Origin: Branchiostoma floridae
Taxonomy: Eukaryota; Chordata; Leptocardii; Amphioxiformes; Branchiostomatidae
Length of the DNA: 64,000 bases
Direction: 5' to 3'
Assembly (NCBI RefSeq): GCF_000003815.2
Contig: NC_049987.1
Coordinates: 3,528,026 to 3,592,025 of the forward strand
Position 1 is the stretch's first letter. Each line of letters starts with the position of its first letter. The notes under the pieces are model-generated. The model was given only the letters and a program-made list of their open reading frames with translations, searched no databases and was not told the origin of the DNA. Below are positions 23,618 to 63,530 of this stretch, one piece after another. The position numbers and the translations under genes are program-made.

Positions 23618-23796
23618 CCTTAGTTCGGCTACAGGAGCTCATCAGTTTACCGGCCAGGCGACAACGCGTAAAGGTGATCGTGTACCAGGTGGAAAAGGGC
23701 GACTCTCGGAACGTACTGAGGGAAATACGGAATTCGGGAACAACCGAGATCGTCTTGGATCTGAGCACGTCTACTTTGGAAACATTCCTACAACAG
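23618..23796 (+). CDS. receptor A exon 4: amino-terminal domain, LVRLQELI segment
   Basis: It follows GTCTTAAAG and enters in phase 1. It reads ALVRLQELISLPARRQRVKV and ends STSTLETFLQQ at a phase-0 donor. It is homologous to the exon of gene B whose 5' edge has been amplified into an array; here there is a single copy. Confidence 0.93.
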
Positions 23797-47421: not shown

Positions 47422-47577
47422 CTAGGCCTTATTGCTTAAACAGTAGTCGTCGTAGTCGGTGGTTTTCTGTGTCTTTAGCCGTGGGATTATGTTAGTGTTG
47501 GTAGGCAAGACGAAGTTTGGTGAGGGTGCCATGCTGAGGGAACCTTTGAAGACATCCGACAGGTTTTGCATGTGTTG
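47422..47577 (-). CDS. receptor B exon 15: cytoplasmic tail and stop (predicted)
   Basis: It follows a strong pyrimidine tract and acceptor (CTCTGTGTCTTCCTTAG). In phase 0 it reads QHMQNLSDVFKGSLSMAPSP, then IIPRLKTQKTTDYDDYCLSN, and KA before TAG. The phase suits the end of exon 14 and a poly(A) signal follows within 80 nt. The acidic TDYDDY near the end is unlike the tail of gene A. It relies on a non-consensus donor (AAG|GTTGGA) at exon 14. Confidence 0.7.
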   Translation of the reverse strand, partial: QHMQNLSDVFKGSLSMAPSPNFVLPTNTNIIPRLKTQKTTDYDDYCLSNKA

Positions 47578-49196
47578 CTAAGGAAGACACAGAGACAAGA
47601 GGACAAGACAGAGAGTTAGCTAGATGTTAGAGAGGACAGAGACATAAACAATGACACAGAATAGCGGGTTAAGTATCAATATAATATGTGCATTCCCAGA
47701 TCTGGATAGACCTTTTACAAGGACCAAACCGACGAAAAATCTCAAGGACCAGAATGTTTATCTTTCGATAAAACTTGCTAAACTCAAATGACAGGTAGAT
47801 TAGCCATACATACTGCATGGATTGAGCACGAACTATAATTTGCGTTAGTAATAAAAAGCACAGAGAATACCAGTTTCTTTTGACTTCGTGGCATAGGTAA
47901 TGCTCATTTTAGGGGGGTACGAATTAAGGAATCAGATAAAAAGAAACAAATTGTAACTGTACCAATCTCTCACAAAGGTAGGTTCAAACATGAAGCAAAG
48001 TGGAAAGTACTGAGATCTTTGATTTAATGCCAGCATGTCAGATGATCAGCAAAGTATTAGAAAAATCCATACACACTTATACACACACAACATTGACCAG
48101 TGCAGGCGTGTATTAGTAGCCAGTGCACAACTTCAACTTCACTTGAAACTAGAGTTCTGCGACCTCATGCCCCATTAAATATCTAGAGCTTTTGTAAATT
48201 TTATGCAAATGACTTGAACATTGGCATAATTTATTCAAGATGATGTTCATCATTGACTAACTTACACGTCACAAGTATATAATTCCCAACATGTGTCAGG
48301 CGTTTTCGCCACTTTTGCATAGATTATGCAAATCAGTTCCTCACTTACATATTTGTTATCTGTATATGCTCCATCTTTTATCATAGATTACATGTGTTAT
48401 ATCTATTAAAGTCCAATTATGGAAAACAGTGAAACTATATGATTTACTCATTAATAATGCAAGTCAAGTCTTCATTTTCATCATATGTGTATCAATATAA
48501 CATCTTGTCTAAGCTACCTGCATGGATAACAATCCGCCGTTCCTTCTTTCATTTAAATTTGGTGGAATGTCTTGACAAAAACGCCCCTGCATTTTTACAA
48601 TTAATGTTAATGGGATCAAACCTACACCACCTTATCCAGACATTGAAAGCTACCTGCAACCCAAATATCAAGACTCAAATATTACATCCGGGACAAGCTA
48701 TGCATTGAAAAACGGCTATGATAGGATATCTTCTTAATTATGCAAATGTGCCCCCAAGCTGCATAATTTGTTCTTTTTGGTCCAAGTTACCTACATACCA
48801 AAAATGATGAAAATCCATTATTCCTATCTTGAGCTATCCTCTTTGAATTATTTTTACATAAATGCCCCTGCAATTCCAAACCAATCCGTCACATTTTCCG
48901 AGCACAACTGCTATCTAACGCCTGAAAATGGTGTCCATAGCTTGTTTAGAGCACAAAATATAAAAACCGGTGTTAAGCTGTAATACAAAGGCAAGCCGCT
49001 AGGAGACTGATACTACAATTATTTCTAGTGTTTTTCACACCCAGACTAAATATGAAAACCATCCATCCAGCCGTTCTTGAGTTATTTTGTTGACAGACTG
49101 TCAGACACACAAACACAAACGCTAGTGGAAATATTGGTAATGATCTGCATATGTGAGCATTTCTAGCTATGATAGATGAAGAACGTTGTTTCCAAC
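47578..49196 (-). other. last intron of receptor B
   Basis: 1.6 kb. The part nearest exon 14 is filled by the reversed copy of element family 3 (48148-49140), and I see nothing else coding. If the weak donor of exon 14 is not used, translation would read into this intron for nine codons (VGNNVLHLS) to a TAG at 49167-49169. Confidence 0.6.
48148..49140 (-). mobile_element. dispersed element family 3, copy B (reversed)
   Basis: AACTAGAGTTCTGCGACCTC matches, in reverse complement, the GGTCGCCGAACTCTAGTT end of copy C. Internally TACCTACATACCAAAAATGA is the reverse complement of the TCATGATTTTTGGTATGTAG stretch of copy A. It ends with TTCTTGAGTTATTTTGTTGA, the reverse of the ATAACTCAAGAA block. 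Confidence 0.65.
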
Positions 49197-49453
49197 CTTG
49201 TCCCTTTCCTGAGTGGACCTGGATTTCCAGATAAACTCAATGATGGCCACGATGATGCCGACCACCAGACCGGCAATCAGCACGATGAAGATCCCGCCCA
49301 CATTCGCCACGCCCAGGGCGCTGGCCTCCTTATTCTTGTCCTCGTTCGAACACTGGCCCATGTTCACCCACCACTTGTTGTACAGCATCTGGATCTGACC
49401 TGCCTCTTGGAGCTGGAGGATGGCTATGGTGATTTTGTCACGGATTGGCGAAC
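49197..49453 (-). CDS. receptor B exon 14: end of S2, M4, start of tail
   Basis: Phase 1 in, phase 0 out. [40 protein letters not shown] and [20 protein letters not shown] continue to [20 protein letters not shown]. The ASALGV(E/A)N(V/I)GGIF motif is diagnostic of kainate receptors. It corresponds to exons 15 and 16 of gene A. Confidence 0.95.
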
Positions 49454-51312
49454 CTTAACAGAAATAGGATAAACGTTTATAGTACAATATAAAACTATGC
49501 AACATGCATCCTCCTACGCAGGGACATCGAACAGCGAAACAACCTGTCTGGATATACCCTGCTTTCTCAACCGTCACTCATAGTTCCTGTGGACGGATAT
49601 ATAATGGTAAATAAGCTCATTGATATTCATAAGAAGGGCAGTCAGGAACTAAGAGTGACAGTTGAGAAAGCAGGGTACATCTAGACAGGCGGTTTCGCCG
49701 TTGGATGTCCCTGCGTAGGAGGATGTGCAACACGATACCATGGTACGATGCTAAACTTTCTTCCAACGCAAAGGTAACTTCAGAACGTAAACTCTCGAGA
49801 GGTATAGGCACATGATCATATTGACACGTGATCTTGCGGATACTTGACGTCAGCAATTGATCAAATGTACCAGAAAGTTTATAACGTCCACCGTCTCTGT
49901 TCAGTGATGGCTGAAGTGCCCTGAGAATTTGACCTGTGTGTATATTTGTGTCGGAAGAAGGTTTTGCACTATACTATACTAGTGAACACAAATGAGCTTC
50001 CATAATGCCATGTTTAATTCCATTTAAAAATCTGTCTATAGACCCATTTCCTCACTTTGGTTTTCAGTAAAGCAGGAAGTTTCCCTTACCGCCATGTTGG
50101 TGTCCTGGATTTTCGTTGCAACGGACTGTTGCCAAATTCAACTCACCGTTGCTTTTTCGCAAATTCTCAGTTGTTGTGAGACTTTTGTCTGATATTTTCT
50201 TTGGAGTTATACATGCTTAATGGTAGTTATTTAAGAGGGTAAAAGGACCTATAGTTGTCCCAAAACGCTTCATGTATGCGGTTCATGGCAATTAGAATAA
50301 CTGTGTGTGCCATCATATCGGTGCTCCTATGACGTCACGTAAAATGCTCTACACAAACTCCTGACACAAACTATCAGAAATGGGATCCGACATGTTCAGC
50401 GTTCTGGTCTGAATACCGACTAGCCATGTTGCCAACGGGTATCCTCAAGGTATTGCTAAGAGTTGGGGCGTTTCAGGCCATCCTTGTACGGATTGTACAT
50501 GATGTATTATAACTATATGCTGTGCGATCGGTCACATACTGCAACATTGATTACATTTGTCATGTGGGTAGCGCTGCCTAGAGCCGGGTCCACGATGTTA
50601 AAGGACACTTGGAAGACCCAGCAACAATGGAAAACATGTTAACAGGGTTCACATCAGGACAATTATTCTCCGTCCTATAGGAAAAAGGACGGCGTATCGT
50701 CAGTCTGTTTAATGCCTATTTTGATCCAAATAGCAGATATCGACATATCTACTACGGCAGTGGAAATTCTTCATGTGTGACATTTTTCACCTTTTCTATC
50801 CCATCAAAGATCGTTGTAATCACTCAGGACGTTTACATTCACACCTTCAGCCCCGCGTGGTGAGAGAAGGGTCATGATTTAAAGCCTGTCAGAGTATGAG
50901 TCACACCACTTCATCTCCTCATCCATCCGCGCCCTTCCGACCTTCACATCGGAGTCAAAACTGACACCAGCGTGTGAAGAAAATAAACTTTCGCAAAACT
51001 GCTGCCTTTAATTATGAGATCTAAGTTGTAAGGGAGGTTTGGTATATGACTAAACACACTAAGTATGGTATATCTAACAGTAGATTCTTTAGTTTTGTTC
51101 TTTCACATCTTTTTCGTTGACTTTGAAATTGACTTCGACATTCTGAGATATTATTATCCGTTTCACGATATAGTTCAGCAATTTACAGCATGTATTTGCT
51201 CATTTTACAGCTTCTTTGCACGATTTAACGAATGGTCGAAAATCTTATTTTTGGAAACGAACGGAAATTGATACGCTTGCAAATGTCCTCCATAACATTG
51301 CCGAATTCTTAC
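49454..51312 (-). other. intron 13 of receptor B
   Basis: 1.86 kb. It contains the MITE at 49507-49725; the remainder has no coding signal that I can recognise. Confidence 0.6.
49507..49725. mobile_element. long-TIR MITE, family 4, copy 1
   Basis: Arms of about 83 bp are inverted repeats. The left arm starts CATCCTCCTACGCAGGGACA and the right arm is its near-exact reverse complement. A 9-bp target duplication flanks it (TGCAACATG at 49498, TGCAACACG at 49726). Long arms plus an 8-9 bp duplication suggest a Mutator- or hAT-type non-autonomous element. It sits 45 bp upstream of the exon 14 acceptor. Confidence 0.8.
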
Positions 51313-51538
51313 CCTCAGGAGTCCCGATGCCGTAACCCTTGGAGTCCAGCAGTCCCCCCACGCGGGTCAGGTTGCAGTTCCTGTGAGTGAAGTACTCGTT
51401 CATGGCGGACTCCAGTAGGAAGGCGTAGTTCTCGTTCAGGACTCGGTCGATCCCCTCCTCCGTAGACTTGGTGAACACAGACGGCTCCTGGGAGCTCATG
51501 AACGCCCACATTTTTTCATAGGTGGGAATTTTCGAATT
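51313..51538 (-). CDS. receptor B exon 13: S2 half of ligand-binding domain
   Basis: Phase 0 in, phase 1 out, 226 nt as in gene [21 protein letters not shown] is followed by [20 protein letters not shown] and [19 protein letters not shown]. It holds the conserved ligand-binding Glu and the Cys of the S2 disulphide. Confidence 0.96.
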
Positions 51539-52681
51539 CTGAGTGGAAGGATACAGATATATTTATTGACACAACAAATAAAAGTACAGCGACTTTCGTA
51601 AGGTCTGTCTGATATGCAAAGTTAAAGTTACTCAAGCAACTGGCTTTGCAAACGTTTCCGTTTGCTTAGTACTTATTACCTCCATGAAATGTCATGGAGT
51701 TTATATTTTACCCTGCGTTTGTCTGTGTGTAAACAAGATAACTCAAGAACGGCTGAGTGAATTGGTTTCATACTTAGTATGTTGGTAGTGTGTGATGAAA
51801 GCTGGATATGTCGTACAAAATGACGTACTAATTATGCAAAATAGAAATGAAATTGTATAATTAATGAAAATATTCTATCATAGCAGTTTTTAATGTATCT
51901 ATGTATCTCTTGTTCTGGACGTGATATGGTCTTGACATTTGGCTGGTAGATAGCTTGCAGTGCCATGACAAAGTGGGGCAGGTTTCAGTCCCCTAACATT
52001 TAATTGCAGGGGCGTTTTTGTCAAGACATTCCAAAGAGGATAACTGCAGAAAGGATTGACGAATTGACATTTTAGGCAAGCAGGTAGCTAGGGCAAAAAT
52101 GTTCATAATGATATGCACGTTGAGCAAATGAGGACTTAATTTGCATAATTATGGGGGAATTGTATAATTCCATTGTTTTCAATAACTCGACTTCAATAAA
52201 TGCAACATATGCAAATTATGATAGATGGAATAAAAGCAGATACCAAATATGGTAATGAGGAACTTGTTTGCATAATTTATGTAAAAACTGTAAAACTGCT
52301 TTATGATTAATGATGGGAATTTTATAATTGTGACATGTGTACGCTAGTCAATGATGAACAACACCATGCATGAATTATGTTAATTTGTTAGTCAATCGCA
52401 TGAAATTTACAAAAGCTCTAAATATTTCATGGAGGTATGAGGTCGCCGAACTCTAGTTATTTTATTTATGCCTAGGAGCACAGACAATAGGATGAAGGAC
52501 AAAAGAATTACTATCAATGGTCATCACATCACACAGATCCAAAGATCCTTGTCACTTTCATTTATCACTACATAGAATACAATGGAAGACCTATCCCAAG
52601 ATGACATTCACCAAGGACTACGCTAGCTCTGTGCTTTGTCTGCTCGGATGGCGATGAACAAATTGTATTCAAGAAACCCAC
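51539..52681 (-). other. intron 12 of receptor B
   Basis: 1.14 kb, mostly copy C of element family 3 (51677-52437). Confidence 0.7.
51677..52437 (+). mobile_element. dispersed element family 3, copy C
   Basis: It begins TTACCTCCATGAAATGTCAT and closes with ATTTCATGGAGGTA, so short terminal inverted repeats (TACCTCCATGAAAT) bound about 760 bp. The interior shares TAAACAAGATAACTCAAGAA and GGCGTTTTTGTCAA with the other copies. No coding capacity. Confidence 0.75.
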
Positions 52682-53242
52682 CTTAAAGAATGTTTGGGTC
52701 GCACCGAAATCTAACGTTCCGTACTTTATCTTCGTTTGTTTCGCAAGATCATCTGCTGACTCGATGGGTGACTCCATTCTCTCCACGGTGAGGAAAGCCG
52801 CCAGGTTCGCGGTGTAGGACGAGATCATGATGAGCGTGAAGAACCACCACGCTCCGCTCACAAGTCTCGTGGACAGCGCCCTCGGCATGATCTCCGAACC
52901 CTGCTGCATGAAGGCGCCAATAGAGAACCACATGCTATTCAGCAGGGTGAACTGGTTCTCCAGGTACTCCGAGTTGGGGTTACACGGGTGAGGGTTATAC
53001 CACTCGTACGGGCTAAATCTCGCCAGGACGAAGAGGACTCCGCTGACGGCGAGGTACGAGAGGAGGATGTACAGCCAGATGTCGTAGGACAGCGGGTTGA
53101 GGAACGAGAAGACGCCGGGGTTGGTTCTGTTCGGTACGCGGTACATTATGGTGACACCCACGTTCATGAACGGTTTGGAGAAGTCTATGACTTGTTCTCT
53201 GATGAAGCTGATGGTAAGTGGAGCCACAGCCAGGTCGGCTCG
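52682..53242 (-). CDS. receptor B exon 12: end of S1, M1, pore loop, M3, start of S2
   Basis: One 187-codon exon, phase 0 at both ends. [21 protein letters not shown]1 [20 protein letters not shown]; pore [21 protein letters not shown]3 [20 protein letters not shown]; then [19 protein letters not shown]. In gene A this same segment is divided over exons 11, 12a/12b and 13 (558-564 nt in total). The pore sequence is kainate-like, with PCNP and QQGSE. Confidence 0.97.
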
Positions 53243-54066
53243 CTGTGACAAAATATGTAATCGTTTTAGAAAATGAATATAAATATTCACACGGTACCAG
53301 AATATACATACTTCATATGTATACCAATAAGATACAACACATTTAACAGTACTAGTGGCTTTCGTAGTACAAGACTCATACATCGTTACAAACGCTAGAA
53401 ATAAAGAAAAGAAAGACAGCTAGAAAGGCAACATTTGCGCCCAAAAGCAGAATGTTTTCCCTTTTCCATATGGCCTTTTGTCAAACTATTATTTTCGCCC
53501 TATAGTATTGTGTGCGAGTAAAAATAAATACATCACCTTGGTTTAGTATAATGTGCGGGTAAAAAAGCGGTGCTTAGCTAGCGCAAACCTATAATAATTC
53601 TTCATGTTCATTAATACACCTAATACGCTAATGCAGATTTAAGTTTGAGTCGTTCATTACAGTTCTAACTTCTGACAGAAGAAGGAAAATAATGAAAAGA
53701 ACAAACTAGCAAAAACAATCTTTTTTCTTATCGGCGACGACAACCACGCATGCCATGAACACAAAAAAGAGAACGTACTGGTCATTCCCTACGCAGAGAC
53801 ATCCAACGGCACCAGCGCCTCTTGTCTGCACTCTGCTATCTGAACCGTCACCATCAGTTCCTGACCGCCCTACTTATGAATATCAATAAGCTTACCCTTA
53901 TATGTGAGACCTTGTGAAAGCTGAAAGGCCTATCCTCTGATTGGCTGACAGCTGATTTGTGGCGACGCCCACGGGAACTGATGGTGATGGTTGAGATAGC
54001 AGAGTGCAGCCAAGAGGTGGTTTGCTGGCACCGTTGGATGTCTCTGCGAAGAAGAATGGTACTGAC
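53243..54066 (-). other. intron 11 of receptor B
   Basis: 824 bp. The third nearest exon 11 is MITE 53781-54058, leaving only 8 bp between element and exon. Confidence 0.7.
53781..54058. mobile_element. long-TIR MITE, family 4, copy 2, abutting a splice donor
   Basis: The ends share CGCAGAGACATCCAACGG with each other and with copy 1 (49507-49725). The inverted arms extend about 100 bp to CAGTTCCTG / CGGGAACTG. GTACTG at 53775-53780 and 54059-54064 is the target duplication. The right duplication overlaps positions +3 to +8 of the exon 11 donor (CAG|GTCAGTAC). Confidence 0.8.
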
Positions 54067-54270
54067 CTGATCAATAAGCTCCTTCACCATGCCTGACCAC
54101 TCTCCGTCCTCCATGGGTGCGCCATACTGCCCATCGGGCACGAGGTATATCTCGTACTTGAATCCAAGAATGGCGGCGATCTCGTTGAGTAAGTCGATAC
54201 AAAACCCTTCAAACCTGTCGTTACCCAGCAGCTCTTCGTCGGACCTCTTCTGCATGACGTACGGTTTTTC
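54067..54270 (-). CDS. receptor B exon 11: S1 half of ligand-binding domain
   Basis: 68 codons, phase 0 at both ends. [40 protein letters not shown] and [20 protein letters not shown] follow in order. It keeps Tyr at both ligand-contact positions. The donor is GTCAGT, immediately followed by the MITE. Confidence 0.96.
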
Positions 54271-54897
54271 CTGAGGAACACAATTGTCTGTCAAATTAAA
54301 GATTCTTCATAGATGTACATGCACCAATGTGACTGAAGTAACGGACATTCCATGAATCAAGTAATCATGCCTCAAACTCCAATTCATGAACGTTAATTGA
54401 ACTGAACAATTAAATTTACAGCCAAATAGTTGCGCTTGTGACCTAAATTCCTCTTAATTTTTCAAAATGGACAAAATACAAATAATTAAAATCCACATGC
54501 TGATAGATACATTTGTAGGTAACACAAAGTCAAGCTAAAAGCAATTATAAATTGCACTGTGAAACAATGGTAAGGCAAAGCTAGCTAAGACAATGATGAT
54601 GCAAATGAGTCAATTGGTTCCTGTTGTTTTAGTAACAGGAGCTAATGTTTTGTCGCGGGGGGGGGGGGGGCTAACCTAACTTTGGACAGGCGTTGCCAGT
54701 CACATTACATTCAGCCATGGACTGGGATTGCTTGATTTCATTGGAGGGTACTTGCGGAGGTTAGTGTAAGTCTGAATACTTATAATTGCCATTTTATCGA
54801 ATAATGCGAAGTAGCCTGCATTTATTACGCCCTGAAAGCAATATCTATTGTTAAATAACATTCATTTATGGAATGGAATGACCCTTTCAATACTCAC
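54271..54897 (-). other. intron 10 of receptor B
   Basis: 627 bp with a 15-16 nt G homopolymer near 54656-54671 (a likely sequencing-difficult site). Nothing else is seen. Confidence 0.6.
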
Positions 54898-55014
54898 CAA
54901 GATGGTGGTGACAATAAGTGTCTTGTTCCGTAGAGAATTGGTGACGTTTGAGCCTGCCAGCGACCTGTCGGTAATGTTCAGCGCCTGTCTCTCTCCTGAA
55001 TTCCAAGTTCCAAG
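54898..55014 (-). CDS. receptor B exon 10: linker to the ligand-binding domain
   Basis: 39 codons, phase 0 at both ends. LGTWNSGERQALNITDRSLA is followed by GSNVTNSLRNKTLIVTTIL, the GTW..GLN(I/M)T and L(I/V)VTT(I)L landmarks of kainate receptors. NIT, NVT and NKT are sequons. Confidence 0.95.
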
Positions 55015-55692
55015 CTAATCAAAGGGATAATGCAATCAGATGGTATGTTACTCTTGTAGTCCGTTGACAATAAACACATATACATACAGTATTATAACAA
55101 TGTCCATTAACTGTAAGACAGACTAGTATAGTATTTGAAGGCAATGAAATCTGTAGAATTAAAATCATTAACGTTTCCGTCATCTTTATCTACGTTAGCC
55201 TTGATACATTTTAATGCTAAGTGAAGAAACTGATGCGGCAGGCAGTAAGCCCTGATGTTTCATACGAAATAATCCGCTTCACAATTTCAGTGTCACAGGG
55301 GATTCTGGGTCAGGTCAGAGATCATTGGCCCTCAGAAGTAAAGAAACATTCGTGTTGAAAGTTCATCCGTGTTGGTAGAAGTCATTCTAACTAAACCTGA
55401 GCTGTGATTTCCAACACATATAAAATTAGACGTATCCAAATTTTCGACTTATCTACTGCTGTCTATCTTTGTTGAGGAATGGACAATTCACTACTTCTGT
55501 GACGTCATGTTAATAGAATGTGTAGATAGCACACGTCATACATCATAAGTTGCAGAAAGTCTATGGAAAATGCTAGAGGAATCAAAGAAGCTATCTACAT
55601 CATAGCTTTACAACCAGCTGTTGAGCCGGAGGGCGCCATAGACATTGGGTAGGTCCCATGTTACTAACTGATGTACATATAACAGTCTGTAC
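55015..55692 (-). other. intron 9 of receptor B
   Basis: 678 bp. No coding or repeat signal recognised. Confidence 0.55.
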
Positions 55693-55800
55693 CTTTGTCA
55701 GCCCAGCTTCCCTGAGTTCCATGACATCAAGGCTAAACTTGGTTCTCTGTCCGTTACTGTCGAATTTTATCCGACCACTTAAACCATCCTGTAGCTCCGC
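55693..55800 (-). CDS. receptor B exon 9: amino-terminal domain
   Basis: 36 codons, phase 0 at both ends. AELQDGLSGRIKFDSNGQRT followed by KFSLDVMELREAGLTK matches exon 8 of gene A in length, phase and motif. Confidence 0.94.
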
Positions 55801-56400
55801 CTAGGAAAAGAAAGATAATATAAAGACAAAATATAACATAAGTAGGTCCATTTCACACAATACATACTTCTCTTTTACATCCAGTCATTGGGACTTCATC
55901 AACAGCAACATTCATTTCATTCATGCCTGTGAAACAAATTTTGAATCGGGCAAACTCAGTATGCAGAAACAACCGGGACTTGGGCCAAGTATGGGCACAT
56001 ACCGACAAAAACATTCAAACAAATAGACAGAACGAAAACTATCAACCCGTTTTAAATGAGGTAAGAACATCAAGCTCTTTCTGAAATGTAGTTTCCATCT
56101 GAAGAATTTCTTATATCGCAAAGACCGTCTCTCCAGACACTCTTTATTTTACGGCGTCATGGAACGGGGCCTTCTGATTGGTCCGCGGGGCCTGGCTATA
56201 TGATAATGTGGCTTAATAAACTGTTGTCATTAATTCCCGAGTTTTACCCCTCTAAAGGAATGATTAGAGATACACATGCCTGGAGAAATATTCTTTACAT
56301 GCCTGCATGATTTTGGGAATTCTTGTCAAACGGTCGCAAACTATACTACTAGGCTCGCCCCTGAGGTATCACCAATACGACAAAGCACAGTTCTTACTAC
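55801..56400 (-). other. intron 8 of receptor B
   Basis: 600 bp with no coding signal. It contains GATTGGTCCG near 56177, a possible dispersed-repeat trace. Confidence 0.5.
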
Positions 56401-56550
56401 TTTCAGATAGTTGAGCACAGTATGGCCGTACAGCCACGCTTTTCTGTTGTCGCATGATAACTTGCTCAGCGAGATCTCCTGACCAACGTCGGATCCCTCC
56501 AGTCCGGCCACCAGCACATAGATGGCGTCAAACATCAGAGCAACGGGTGT
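56401..56550 (-). CDS. receptor B exon 8: amino-terminal domain
   Basis: 50 codons, phase 0 at both ends. TPVALMFDAIYVLVAGLEGS is the (A)LMYDAV helix. LSKLSCDNRKAWLYGHTVLN carries the conserved Cys and the aromatic after the K(P/A)W motif. Confidence 0.94.
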
Positions 56551-57197
56551 CTGAGGAAACACAGCAGAGTAAGATATCGGCCAAACATTACAAAATACAA
56601 ACAGAACAATGTAAAAAATTTACACATCCATGGAGGTTGAAATGTCTAAACAAACAATATCTAAAGTCAAATTGATATCTAAAAATGGATAAGATAAGGA
56701 GATTAAATTCGGACATTTTGAGTGACATCCATCACAGCTTCAGTAAAATGAACCGGCAAACGTCCGGAAGTAATTTTTGTATCTTATCTAGTTGAATAGA
56801 TGTATCTCTGGCACATGCAACATGTGTATCAATGAAAAAGTACAAAAATCATTACGTATCTCTTCTTAATACAATTCTGGCAAATCCACTGCAATGTCAG
56901 AGAAAGATGCTTAGAGTCGAAACTTTAATTTTCCCCACTTTGTTTAAACGCCATAATCCCTCTGTTACTGTAGTATGAATTTCACTGCATGCATGTCCGA
57001 AACAATATTCGGAAGCTCATGTGCATTATCATGGAAACACACTCGGGGGCCTGAAATAGATAATGACCTTCGTCATCTCAAGGCCTGCTGCATATCACAA
57101 CAATCCATCTCTGGCTCCTAGCGATTGGACGCACATCAGACAAACAGACAAAAGAACGTCAAGCAATACCAAGATGTTTACAAACGGACAGGCGTAC
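56551..57197 (-). other. intron 7 of receptor B
   Basis: 647 bp. No feature recognised. Confidence 0.55.
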
Positions 57198-57365
57198 CGT
57201 GAGGCCATCTTTGATAGTACCACTGATGACGTTAGAAGACTCTCGCACTCTCGTCCAATCACGAAGAACCTCCTGCACTCTAGGGTTCTTGTTATCGACC
57301 AATCGGAACGCCGTCAGGTTCACGTCACCGTGTCGATAGTTCTCCAGGTCAACCGTGGCTAAATC
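57198..57365 (-). CDS. receptor B exon 7: amino-terminal domain
   Basis: 56 codons, phase 0 at both ends. DLATVDLENYRHGDVNLTAF, then RLVDNKNPRVQEVLRDWTRV. It continues directly from the HYIVTSL end of exon 6, as DLFALD follows FTTL in vertebrate receptors. The NLT sequon aligns with the NMT of the YSGVNMT motif. Confidence 0.93.
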
Positions 57366-58018
57366 CTTTAGAAGGGTTGAAGGGACAAGCAACACAGGAT
57401 CGATAAACATTAATCTCAGTAGAAAGAAAGAGGTGAAGCTGATGATAAGAGGAAGAAGGACGACATCTTGTAAACAATTTACCATTGACATCATTTTCAT
57501 AATATATAGAATTGTTTTTGTTACGCTAGTCACTGTAATCTTAAATGTCGCAAAAAGAATACAAAGAAAGTTTTTTAGATTTACTGTTGAGCATGGCGTT
57601 CTTGCCGCTTTAGTCACCCCTATGACTTTCCAAGTCCAAAGTCATTTGCCAATGTCAAACTAAAGCCAAAAGTAATCAACATATGCCTCTCTGTAGGTAA
57701 TAGTCCCATTTTGTAGGTTTAGCCTTTGCGCTACTGGAGTAGCAGAAGTACTTTCATCTAAATGCATGGTATATTGATTATCGTTAGCGCTTGCGAGAAA
57801 GCCTCAATTGTTTGACGTTTCATTTGATAGGTACGTGATGCCATCGCTTGAAATGCCTGCAAGTTCAGCGATACCATGTTGTGGCTGAAGATAGCAGGGT
57901 AACGCATTCACTATAGTTACCTCCGAGAAATTGTCGTAAGTACAGAATCAAAAACTGAACAGTACCGGGGTATCAAAATCAATGTTCATTACAGGGTTGG
58001 AGGAGAAAAGCCACTTAC
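57366..58018 (-). other. intron 6 of receptor B
   Basis: 653 bp. Open frames on either strand here lack homology. Confidence 0.55.
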
Positions 58019-58072
58019 CAAAGAGGTGACGATGTAGTGGTAGAAATGCGTCATCATGCCTAGCTGGAGAGC
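58019..58072 (-). CDS. receptor B exon 6: 18-codon amino-terminal domain exon
   Basis: ALQLGMMTHFYHYIVTSL, phase 0 at both ends, after a TTTTCCTCACAG acceptor and before GTAAGT. It matches MGMMTEYYHYIFTTL of vertebrate GRIK. Confidence 0.95.
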
Positions 58073-58882
58073 CTGTGAGGAAAACTGTTGTGTAAATCTC
58101 GCAGAAAGGATAAGAACTTAGGTGCTGATTGTATGGCTTAGAAAATCTCTAATCGGAGAGCGAAATTGGCCTTGACTGTGAAAGCACTTCGAAAGGGTCT
58201 TACGTATTAGATGGGGGCGATTAGTGGAACGTGCCAGGGTATTCATCACTAGAATTACGATCTCGAACAACCTCGGGTCCAGGCAATCTAGAATTATCTG
58301 GGGTACACTCGGGTAATTCTGTCTCGGGTGGAACTATTTTCAGATAATATTGGTATCAAACATGATGTATTTGAAACTGAAAGACCAGCTTGTGGTACAG
58401 AGGCTGTGATCAGCAATTTTAATAATACGTATAAATGCACATGTATCATGTACAGAAAGGTGAAATAGCAACCTTGTATTTTTAGAGACTATTGAAGTCT
58501 AAGTGGTCATCAATGTCCAAATTTGTCATTTTTGCAACAATGTTTCTGCATGTCGTGAATTTCATCCTGTCCAGGGAAACAGCGTATTAGAAATTGAAGA
58601 GGAATATGTTGTGTTGGGGCTTACATGCCCTTGGAAAATTTTGGTCCGCAGGAGACAAAAATAGATTTTTGGCAGCCAAAACAATGAGGTTACGGAGGTG
58701 TCTTCAGTTAAAGCACCCTTCTAACAGTTATAGCCAGGTCACATAAATTGTACGATGGTCGTGAGGCCGCAAAGACCTTTAGAAGGCCTGTGTAAGTTAT
58801 TCTCGCAAGGGTCTCTGCATAGAAATGTGTTGTTACCGCACCGTTGTAAGCCGAAGTGAAATGGAATTACACTTCAATTTAC
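58073..58882 (-). other. intron 5 of receptor B
   Basis: 810 bp. Nothing recognised. Confidence 0.55.
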
Positions 58883-59058
58883 CTTATGTAATACTCTGGG
58901 TAGTTTCTCGTATGATACGTCGAAGATGATGTTATTGCTGCCGTCCAATTTACAGTCTTTAAGCACGCCTTCCCCGTCCTCCCTCCGTAACTTTCTTATC
59001 TTCAGCTCCATCTTAGTCCTGGCGGGCGCCTTCAGCAGTTCCTGTAGCCTTATCAGAG
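58883..59058 (-). CDS. receptor B exon 5: amino-terminal domain, minimal form
   Basis: From the last acceptor of the array (GTGTTTGATGCAG) it enters in phase 1 and reads ALIRLQELLKAPARTKMELK, then NNIIFDVSYEKLPRVLHK. It matches LIRLQELI.AP.R of GRIK receptors and exon 4 of gene A (179 nt against 176). This is the ancestral-length exon. Any of 17 upstream copies of the same acceptor could extend it in frame. The donor is GTAAAT, phase 0. Confidence 0.92.
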
Positions 59059-59992
59059 CTGCATCAAACACAAAATCATCACACGTGAATAGTTTCTCTA
59101 GCCTTATCAGAGCTGCCTCAAACACAACATCATCACTCTTCAATGGTTCCTGTAGCCTTATCAGAGCTGCATCAAACACAAAATCATCACACGTGAATAG
59201 TTTCTCTAGCCTTATCAGAGCTGCATCAAACACAAAATCATCACACGTGAATAGTTTCTCTAGCCTTATCAGAGCTGCATCAAACACAAAATCATCACAC
59301 GTGAATAGTTTCTCTAGCCTTATCAGAGCTGCATCAAACACAACATCATCACTCTTCAATAGTTTCTGTAGCCTTATCAGAGCTGCATCAAACACAACAT
59401 CATCACTCGTCATTAGTTTCTCTAGCCTTATCAGAGCTGCCTCAAACACAACATCATCACTCGTCAATAGTTCATTTAGCCTTATCAGAGCTGCATCAAA
59501 CACAACATCATCACTCGTCATTAGTTCCTGTAGCCTTATCAGAGCTGCATCAAACACAACATCATCACACGTGAATAGTTTCTCTAGCCTTGTCAGAGCT
59601 GCATCAAACACAACATCATCACACGTGAATAGTTCCTGCAGCCTTATCAGAGCTGCATCATACACAACATCATCACACGTGAATAGTTTCTCTAGCCTTG
59701 TCAGAGCTGCATCAAGCACAACATCATCACACGTGAATAGTTCCTGCAGCCTTATCAGAGCTGCATCATACACAACATCATCACACGTGAATAGTTTCTC
59801 TAGCCTTGTCAGAGCTGCATCAAACACAACATCATCACACGTGAATAGTTTCTCTAGCCTTATCAGAGCTGCATTAAACACATCATCACACGTGAATAGT
59901 TTCTCTAGCCTTATCAGAGCTGCATCAAACACAACATCATCACACGGGAATAGTTTCTCTAGCCTTATCAGAGCTGCATCAAACACAACATC
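59030..59992 (-). repeat. 18-copy tandem array of a splice acceptor plus exon start
   Basis: Each unit, on the minus strand, is CTCTGATAAGGCTACAGGAA and a few bases (start of exon 5), then a GATGATGTTGTGTTTGATGCAG-type intron end. Acceptor AGs immediately precede minus-strand positions 59058, 59112 and every 54 bp up to 59868, then 59919 and 59973. The unit is 54 bp (one is 51 bp), so the frame never breaks: 18-residue repeats of the type LIRLEKLFTC + DDVVFDAA. Units nearest exon 5 keep the exon-like QELLK; distant ones are more homogeneous (EKLFT). It may act as intron, as variable exon, or both. Confidence 0.9.
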
Positions 59993-60203
59993 TCTGCATT
60001 TATACGATCACAGCCTATAACGTCACCAGCGGGCAAAATCACGGATTATACTGACAGAGATAGCGATCATAGCCACTCCCGGAAGACACTGAGAGCGCAA
60101 TCTCTTTCAGTAGCACCACTACTCCTGCCAGATCAGAAAATCTAGCCTGACTGATATGCATTGTGGAAGATGAAAATTAGAAATGAGGTTATCCAAAACG
60201 TAC

Positions 60204-60324
60204 CGTCGTCACTGTCATACAGAAGCGAGACTCTGGTCCAGCCGTAGTAGTTCACCATGTCGAGTATGGCCTGAGACAACATCAAGGCGTCCGGGTACAG
60301 GTTGACAGAATACCTGTCTTCTAC
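60204..60324 (-). CDS. receptor B exon 4: amino-terminal domain
   Basis: Phase 0 in, phase 1 out, 121 nt. VEDRYSVNLYPDALMLSQAI then LDMVNYYGWTRVSLLYDSDD. YSVNLYPD and the YGW...LLYDSDD landmarks are typical of kainate amino-terminal domains. The next intron runs into the acceptor array. Confidence 0.95.
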
Positions 60325-60780
60325 CTAAGGATAACAAAAATGCTGTTGATTCAGTATAAGAATATCACAATGCATTCAATGTGAACAATGCAAACTGTTT
60401 TTTTTTCTATACATGTAACGTTATGAATAAAGACGTATGATAATAACTACGTTTTTGTAATAGCTACACCGCGCGTCACATTGAAGAAGAAATTGGAGAT
60501 CTAATACATCCCTGCCATTGTCCTAACTTCAAGTGCTGTAAACTTAAGGTTCCAAGTCACCGAGGGGCCAGTTATGAATTAGTTGATTGACCTTGCGTGC
60601 AGACCGGCTCTCTATTGACGATACCACACGACTTTCAGAAGGGGGGTCGGGGTCGGCCTGTAGTTCAGGAAAATACTGCTAGGTGGCCCATAATATCCAC
60701 GTTTTTTGGGGCCTCAATAGCGTACCAAAATTCATGCAATTCCATTATTATATCTATAATCTATAATCATACTACACAAC
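60325..60780 (-). other. intron 3 of receptor B
   Basis: 456 bp. An open frame on the opposite strand from 60597 is not supported. Confidence 0.55.
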
Positions 60781-60911
60781 CTGGTCAGGGTTCCATGTGG
60801 TCTGTATGTTGGGTACGGTCAGCGCGGTGCACAGAGACTGGACAGTCGGCGATGATCTGGGTGAGGACGGACCGACAATGGCTGCCACTCCTAGAGTCAA
60901 CTGAAAGCAAG
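60781..60911 (-). CDS. receptor B exon 3: amino-terminal domain
   Basis: Phase 1 in, phase 0 out. ACFQLTLGVAAIVGPSSPRS followed by SPTVQSLCTALTVPNIQTTW matches A..GV.AI(F/V)GPS...VQS(I/L)C.AL.VP(H/N)IQT. The donor is the weak CAG|GTTGTG. Confidence 0.94.
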
Positions 60912-61220
60912 CTAAACAAAGGAAAAAAACTAACGTCACTAACGAAAACATTTCAACACACTTATCAAGACCAGTACAAGAGTACAGATGATTACCCGTG
61001 AGTAGGAAAACTGTGCCGAGGAGATGTATTTCAAGTAAGAGGGAGAAGACTGCCACTGAAGATGGCCTACCTATACTATGGAATAAGTAATACAATGGAG
61101 ACTGCCTAGCCTCGTTTTGGTGCAATGATCCCGTGAAATCCAAAATGGCCGCCATATTAGGCAAGAAGCTATTGTCATAGAAAAAGCCCGGGACGTTAGG
61201 AAAGATAAGAAATGACATAC
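60912..61220 (-). other. intron 2 of receptor B
   Basis: 309 bp, open in the reading frame of both neighbouring exons, so retention would not break the frame. GT-AG ends and the homology on each side favour splicing. Confidence 0.6.
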
Positions 61221-61382
61221 CTGCTCTAGAAGCCTCGTAGCTGTCGTTGACTTTGATCTGCTGAATATCAGAGATCAGCGTGGATCCCGCCAGGAGCGTC
61301 GCGTTTTTGTTGATTTCGTTCATGGCGAACTTGAATGCCACTTCCTCGTCAGTGAACGGCATTTGCTTATTAAACAGGCCAC
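61221..61382 (-). CDS. receptor B exon 2: start of amino-terminal domain
   Basis: Phase 1 in and out. GGLFNKQMPFTDEEVAFKFA, MNEINKNATLLAGSTLISDI, then QQIKVNDSYEASRA. It matches IGG(I/L)F....EE.AF(R/K)FA...IN.N. The acceptor is AATTTTTGTAG. The upstream exon with the signal peptide was not found. An in-frame ATG at 61414-61416 gives a short hydrophobic MNGFRFVLIFVGG if the acceptor is ignored, which I consider unlikely. Confidence 0.93.
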
Positions 61383-61915
61383 CTACAAAAATTAATACAA
61401 ATCGAAACCCGTTCATGAGTCAAACTCTATCAATGCAACAATGACAAGGTCTTATCAATTCTGTCTTCAAAGGTTGGATAACTGACACCATGTTTACGCA
61501 CATCAATCCACGTTTACATTACAAAATACTGTCACAAGTAGCTCTTCGGCAATAGTACCAAAATTACAAAACTTTAAAATCCGTGTAGTGTAACTGACTT
61601 GCAGCTTTATAACGTGTACTGCGGGGATATAAACACAATTGAACTGTAGTTGACCCATATACCCCTGAGACATATTTGAGACTCAAACACTATTACAATC
61701 CAATCCTATCGAAATTGCTGTACCGGTACTTTGGCTCCAATAATAATCCTAAAACTGCAATGCTCTACTTTTTACAGTTACGTCCATTAATCGACCACCA
61801 TATGGGCGCTTATATGTCGATGACCATTATGCTTGGTGTATTCAATTTCTCGCTTCTAACAGACAAATATCCCTACTTTATGGCTTTGATGGATAATTTA
61901 TAAAAGTGGGGTCTT
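61383..61915. other. region upstream of receptor B exon 2, nothing recognised
   Basis: Probably intron 1 of receptor B. No signal-peptide exon with a phase-1 donor could be identified on the minus strand. Confidence 0.45.
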
Positions 61916-62649: not shown

Positions 62650-63530
62650 GCCACTTTGTAAGAGATGACGGCTTGTATCTAAAACGCCTCCAAGACTGGT
62701 CTACATGCTTCATCGTCCATACATCCTTAGTCAAATTACCGGGTAGAGGTACATGGGATAACATAACATTTGTGTCCATAACATAACCACATTACCACTA
62801 TGTAAGGAATAACGGCTGGTATCCCAAAACGCCTCCAAGCCTCGTCTACATGATTCATCGTCAAATACATGCTGGGTCAAAGATACAACGTAGGTAATGA
62901 AATGACATAACATTTGTGTTCGTCGTTCCAATAACCACTTGTAAGGAATAACGGCTGGTATCTAAAACACGTCCAAAACTCGTCTACATGATACGTGGTC
63001 GAATACATTCTGAGTCAAAGTTACAAGGTAGAGGTACATGAAATAAGAAAGAATTTTGTCCGTTGTTGAAATAAACCACATTACCACTATGTAAGGAATA
63101 ACGGCTGGTATCTAAAACACTTCCAAGATTAGTCTACATGATACGTCGTTGAATACATGCTGAGTCAAAGTTACAAGGTAGAGGTACATGAAATAAGAAA
63201 ACATTTGTGTCCGTTGTTGAAATAAACCACATTACCACTATGTAAGGAATAACGGCTGGTATCTAAAACACGTCCAAGATTAGTCTACATGATACGTCGT
63301 CGAATACATGCTGAGTCAAAATTACAAGGTAGAGGTACATGAAATAAGAAAGCATTTGTCCGTTGTTGAAATAAACAACATTACCACTATGTAAGGAATA
63401 ACGGCTGGTATCTAAAACACGTCCAAGACTCGTCTACACGATTCGTCATCAAATACATTCTGAGTCCAAGGTACAATGTAGGTACATGAAATAACACAAG
63501 ATTTGGGTCCCTGTTACAGTACTAAGAAAA
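62650..63530. repeat. ~150-bp tandem repeat, six copies
   Basis: The landmark GTAAGGAATAACGGCTGGTA (or its diverged form) begins at 62658, 62802, 62941, 63091, 63242 and 63391. Spacing is 139-151 bp. Each unit continues with CAAGA..AGTCTACATGAT, ACATGCTGAGTCAAAGTTAC and GGTAGAGGTACATGAAATAA. The last four copies are closest to each other. Confidence 0.95.

What the first reader, a model, noticed from the sequence alone, without database searches (positions are those of the whole stretch)
59030..59992. Eighteen tandem, in-frame copies of one 3' splice site in a receptor gene
The intron end and first ~29 nt of exon 5 have been amplified as a 54-bp unit. Every copy keeps an AG acceptor in the same phase, and no unit has a stop; the single 51-bp unit also keeps frame. 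Splicing to any copy is therefore productive, adding multiples of 18 residues (or up to 305) between DSDD and ALIRLQELLK in the amino-terminal domain. A minisatellite that multiplies a splice acceptor while preserving frame over 915 bp is unusual. It could create length diversity by splicing and by copy-number polymorphism.
Basis: partly seen in the sequence, partly recalled or inferred. Interest (0 to 1): 0.93.

Follow-up and report, generated by a model that had tools for sequence, protein, structure and literature searches.

The report
Amphioxus repeated splice-acceptor "mirage" array
A lancelet (amphioxus) glutamate-receptor gene carries 18 tandem copies of one intron-exon border; this kind of array is already known in amphioxus, and although every copy happens to be in frame, the evidence favours the extra copies being ordinary spliced-out intron.

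Summary
In detail: on the minus strand, 18 acceptors (GCAG|CTCTGA) stand at 54-bp spacing (one 51) at the intron 4/exon 5 border of a kainate-receptor gene, and one frame runs through all of them without a stop. The genome is a lancelet, most likely Branchiostoma floridae. Arrays over intron-exon borders are a known amphioxus feature, "mirages" (Adh, globin, troponin C, PGBD5), reported not to disturb splicing. In this genome 3 of 84 receptor-type exon matches examined carry acceptor mirages; there 12 of 12 upstream acceptors run into stops. The open frame needs no selection: a null gives 15-18%, and 17 random changes leave it open with probability 0.76. Changes among copies are 16 nonsynonymous to 1 synonymous. 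The three Branchiostoma proteins listed have no insert; the repeat peptide matched no protein. Best reading: the last acceptor is used and the rest is intron. No transcripts were available, so leaky use of upstream acceptors is not excluded.

The parts
59037..59992 (-). 54-bp tandem array (mirage) spanning the intron 4 / exon 5 border; about 17.8 units, one unit of 51 bp
   Evidence: TRF; unit listing
59059..59973 (-). 915 nt from the first to the last acceptor: 17 upstream copies, in frame with each other, most likely intronic
58883..59058 (-). exon 5 proper (176 nt), entered from the last acceptor: ALIRLQELLKAP...; continues the GRIK2 amino-terminal domain without a gap
60204..60324 (-). exon 4, ends ...LLYDSDD + G, donor GTACGT
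47425..61440 (-). kainate-type ionotropic glutamate receptor gene (GRIK2-like), 14 merged tblastn hits from the exon starting GGLFNK to a C-terminal hit; the signal-peptide exon was not located
   Evidence: tblastn; PDB GluK2 2.6e-59; database protein P0001 99%

Best explanation
This is an amphioxus 'mirage': a minisatellite grown by tandem duplication of the border between intron 4 and exon 5 of a kainate-receptor gene. Shown: the array, its unit, the frame, one place in the assembly, and sister arrays at acceptors of other genes. Inferred: exon 4 is normally spliced to the last acceptor (59058), which rebuilds the canonical receptor and a 176-nt exon 5, while the 17 upstream copies stay in the intron as unconstrained sequence that turns over by unequal exchange. 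The open frame is a by-product of a 54-bp unit (a multiple of three) whose founder happened to lack a stop.
For: Published mirages with the same anatomy: BflGb6 repeats the 3' end of an intron plus the 5' part of an exon, many copies keep splice signals, and RT-PCR suggests regular splicing (PMC3087553, passages); Adh, TnC and PGBD5 likewise (PMC3902484, passages). In this genome border-spanning acceptor arrays at L016 (84 bp, 3 acceptors), L057 (52 bp, 5 acceptors) and L058 (367-bp higher-order unit, 7 acceptors): 3 of 84 PF01094 matches examined, a lower bound because only TRF arrays within 100 bp of a match were flagged. The last acceptor gives a gapless match at the junction to GluK2 and to Branchiostoma proteins P0001-P0003, YD(N/S)DDAL(I/L)RLQELLK with no insert. 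Array translation P0121 against the protein database: none at E<=0.001. 17 substitution types among 17 units: 16 nonsynonymous, 1 synonymous, 26% synonymous expected, p=0.09; variable columns 10 of 29 in the exon half and 8 of 25 in the intron half. P(no stop given 17 random changes)=0.76; null for an in-frame, open unit 0.15-0.18. AlphaFold2 of the array translation alone: mean pLDDT 43.8.
Against: No transcript was seen for this locus, so last-acceptor use is inferred. The upstream acceptors are near-copies of the last one (pyrimidine share at -5 to -20: 0.50-0.62, last 0.62), so nothing in the local signal forbids their use. This array differs from its three sisters in being in frame throughout (17 of 17 upstream acceptors open, against 0 of 12). 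Members inside database clusters are hidden, P0001 may come from an allele without the array, and the search scored only 8000 word-sharing candidates of about 200-635 residues and did not even list receptor fragments.
Confidence: 0.86

Rival explanations
1. Leaky splicing (compatible with the best explanation): the last acceptor dominates, but a minority of transcripts use upstream copies and, because they stay in frame, yield receptors with one or more 18-residue inserts, without any selected role.
For: All 18 acceptors are nearly equal in local sequence and all are in frame; the globin paper notes that mirage copies could act as cryptic splice sites.
Against: Published RT-PCR on other mirages suggests regular splicing; no protein with the repeats was found.
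Confidence: 0.25
2. A selected length-diversity device: choice among acceptors, plus copy-number change, tunes the length of an insert in the receptor's amino-terminal domain.
For: 17 of 17 upstream acceptors productive, against 0 of 12 in three sister arrays.
Against: No synonymous bias (16 nonsynonymous to 1); frame openness expected by chance; the insert site lies inside the conserved ATD between GluK2 YDDSTG and LIRLQEL; the array translation does not fold with confidence; three Branchiostoma proteins without insert.
Confidence: 0.05
3. Assembly artefact: the copy number was inflated or collapsed in assembly.
Against: Many units differ (up to 9 sites between 54-nt windows not affected by the deletion or the truncated first copy), and the array lies in a 25.4-Mb contig with the expected exons on either side.
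Confidence: 0.07

Closest known systems
Amphioxus mirages (Adh, BflGb6/BflGb9 globins, TnC, PGBD5)
   Same: Minisatellite-like tandem duplication across an intron-exon border; BflGb6 likewise repeats intron 3' end plus exon 5' part; many copies keep splice signals.
   Different: More copies here (18 acceptors; BflGb6 has 6 and 3 repeat units in its two haplotypes) and all in frame; this gene is not mentioned in the passages read.
Acceptor arrays found here at L016, L057, L058
   Same: Same genome, same border type, repeated acceptors.
   Different: Units of 84, 52 and 367 bp; all 12 upstream acceptors lead to stops, 11 before the last acceptor and one 12 nt beyond it in a shifted frame.
Tandem (NAGNAG-type) alternative acceptors (recalled, not tested)
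   Same: Neighbouring in-frame acceptors could change protein length.
   Different: Those are 3-nt shifts with shown use; here the units are 54 nt and use is unshown.

Membership tests
Amphioxus mirage | Tandem minisatellite-like repeat | tested here: met
   TRF period 54, 17.8 copies
Amphioxus mirage | Repeat unit spans an intron-exon border | tested here: met
   25 nt intron end + 29 nt exon 5 start; exon identified by GRIK2 homology
Amphioxus mirage | Occurs in a cephalochordate | tested here: met
   Gene 99% identical to a B. floridae hybrid protein, 97% to B. lanceolatum GRIK2
Amphioxus mirage | Splicing is undisturbed (only the authentic border used) | not testable with these tools
   No transcripts held; indirect support from three Branchiostoma proteins without insert
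Amphioxus mirage | Length instability between alleles | not testable with these tools
   One assembly only; identical non-adjacent units 4=8, 5=7 suggest recent turnover
Selected splice-length cassette | Purifying selection on the encoded repeat | tested here: not met
   16 nonsynonymous, 1 synonymous of 17 distinct substitution types
Selected splice-length cassette | More than one acceptor used in transcripts | not testable with these tools
   No RNA data in these tools
Kainate receptor (GRIK) | ATD, ligand-binding domain and channel homologous to GRIK2 | tested here: met

The most novel reading that the evidence does not exclude
The array is a frame-safe mirage in which several or all acceptors are really used, so one neuronal gene makes a ladder of kainate receptors with 0 to 17 extra 18-residue units in the amino-terminal domain, varying between animals (and, as reported for the Adh mirage, perhaps between cells) with array length.
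Probability: 0.06. Interest if true: 0.75.

Novelty: new member of a known kind. Interest (0 to 1): 0.3.

Why it matters
It is a clean natural test of how the spliceosome picks one acceptor out of 18 near-identical ones, without nonsense-mediated decay hiding the wrong choices, because every one of the 18 is in frame. That makes acceptor choice (first AG, last AG, exon definition) directly readable in cDNA. Mirages may also be common at acceptors of this genome (3 of 84 receptor-type exon matches looked at).

Tried and rejected
Open frame as evidence of coding: rejected, since one antisense frame is also stop-free, the null is 0.15-0.18, and 17 random changes leave no stop with probability 0.76. 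A first run of the null (0.16) had the phase of one of its 12 acceptors wrong; one search is the corrected run. Conservation of the acceptor letters as evidence: 36 of 54 columns are invariant, so four chosen columns are all invariant with chance about 0.19 (my arithmetic). Excess of nonsynonymous changes as positive selection: p=0.09 with few events, not claimed; distinct substitution types were counted, not events on a tree. Fold of the array product: AlphaFold2 from one sequence, mean pLDDT 43.8, not used further. Survey: six loci were flagged by TRF (L016, L039, L045, L051, L057, L058); four were read; L039 does not span the border; L045 and L051 were not read and not counted. L075 arrays begin past the donors and were not counted. 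Six of the 90 PF01094 matches were not covered by fetched DNA, and one of the 84 covered is exon 4 of this same gene. The exon 8 acceptor of the gene was left out of the acceptor comparison because its border was not settled. The Adh mirage paper (PMC117041) is not held; it is cited through the two papers whose passages were seen.

Full report
What is there. The minus strand of the window carries a kainate-type ionotropic glutamate receptor gene. tblastn gave 14 merged hits from about 61440 (the exon starting GGLFNK) down to 47425; the amino-terminal part matches GluK2 in the PDB at 2.6e-59. The genome is a lancelet: the closest database protein is a kainate 2-like protein from a B. floridae hybrid (99% identity), next B. 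lanceolatum GRIK2 (97%). The assembly has 513,431,437 bases in 431 contigs; I take it for B. floridae (inference).

The array. At the intron 4/exon 5 border lies a 54-bp tandem array, 59037-59992, with 18 acceptors GCAG|CTCTGA. Each unit is 29 nt of exon 5 start and 25 nt of intron end. Exon 4 ends in phase 1 (DSDD+G), each copy supplies CT to finish an alanine codon, and reading then runs open through all copies to ALIRLQELLKAP. The consensus unit encodes ALIRLEKLFTCDDVVFDA. One unit lacks three bases and so also keeps frame. A CAG about 20 nt upstream of the first copy is out of frame and would lead to a stop (read).

Is it special in kind? Tandem duplication of intron-exon borders is a known amphioxus feature, named mirages. 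I saw passages of two papers. [quoted passage not shown] It also reports length instability, and somatic instability at Adh3. The PGBD5 paper (PMC3902484) adds PGBD5 and TnC. The original Adh paper is not held.

Sisters in the same genome. A PF01094 search gave 90 matches; DNA was held for 84, one of them exon 4 of this gene. TRF flagged arrays within 100 bp of six loci. I read four; three are border-spanning acceptor arrays: L016 (84 bp, 3 acceptors, metabotropic-receptor-like by my reading), L057 (52 bp, 5 acceptors) and L058 (367-bp higher-order unit, 7 acceptors; ionotropic-receptor hit). Two flagged loci (L045, L051) were not read. In the three arrays, 12 of 12 upstream acceptors run into a stop: 11 before the last acceptor, and one (L057, last but one) 12 nt beyond it in a shifted frame (reading phases taken from the homologous exon). 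A second set of 31 merged homology hits, from the window and from L075, contained no other acceptor-side array; three of the four extra 10-kb stretches gave no exon hits. So repeated acceptors are not rare here, and out-of-frame repeats are evidently tolerated, which implies that upstream copies are normally passed over or their products removed (inference).

The frame. A null made from 12 acceptors of this very gene, with all unit cuts of 15-60 nt on either side, gives an in-frame, open unit in 15% of cases (18% for 20-40 nt). Once the founder is open, 17 random changes leave no stop with probability 0.76. One antisense frame is as open as the sense one. Among the 17 units, 17 distinct substitution types comprise 16 nonsynonymous and 1 synonymous; 26% synonymous is expected without selection (two-sided p 0.09). 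The exon half and the intron half vary alike (10 of 29 and 8 of 25 columns). Against this, all 17 upstream acceptors here are productive while none of the 12 in sister arrays is; but a unit's frame is inherited by its copies, so this is one case against three, not 17 against 12.

Proteins. Three Branchiostoma entries appear among the 120 listed hits (1350 at E<=0.001), and each joins DSDD or DNDD directly to ALIRLQ or ALLRLQ. The array translation found nothing at E<=0.001; that search scored 8000 word-sharing candidates of about 200-635 residues and is limited in reach. An array-bearing full-length receptor of about 1,215 residues would have fallen within the length range and was not listed, but members inside clusters are not shown. 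AlphaFold2 on the array translation alone gave helices at mean pLDDT 43.8, no support for a fold.

Mechanism. Most likely exon 4 is spliced to the last acceptor, which gives exon 5 its 176 nt beside its donor and rebuilds the canonical domain; exon definition would favour it over copies that create exons of up to 1,091 nt. This is inference: local acceptor sequence hardly sets the last copy apart (pyrimidine share at -5 to -20 is 0.62, against 0.50-0.62 for the 17 upstream copies and 0.56-0.88 for 11 other acceptors of the gene). The units show recent turnover: units 4 and 8, 5 and 7, and 14 and 15 are identical over 54-nt windows, so copy number is likely to vary between alleles. Unit 16 is closest to the true exon border (3 differences), as expected if the array grew from it. 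The tissue to test is the nerve cord, where B. lanceolatum ionotropic glutamate receptors are enriched (PMC6307864, passages).

Verdict. In the listings of my paper searches I saw no report of this locus; the library holds open-licence papers only, so this does not show that none exists.

Noticed in passing
5588-39085 (+ strand): A second GRIK-like kainate receptor gene lies on the opposite strand, its 3' end towards the first; TRF shows no array at its counterpart of exon 5 (near 23620, LVRLQELI).
   Followed up: partly
62651-63510: A 151-bp (300-bp higher order) tandem array of about 5.8 copies upstream of the first found exon of the receptor gene, presumably intronic.
   Followed up: no
L016, L057, L058: Three further acceptor mirages in receptor-type genes of the same genome, none productive in its upstream copies.
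   Followed up: yes
59037-59992: The intron-derived part of the unit reads SDDVVFDA or CDDVVFDA, which resembles the end of exon 4 (LLYDSDD) and vertebrate VVYDDS; probably chance, not tested.
   Followed up: no
L039 1729-2037 (reverse strand), L075 6456-6710: 56-bp arrays begin about 12-20 nt past an exon's donor site without visibly spanning it.
   Followed up: partly
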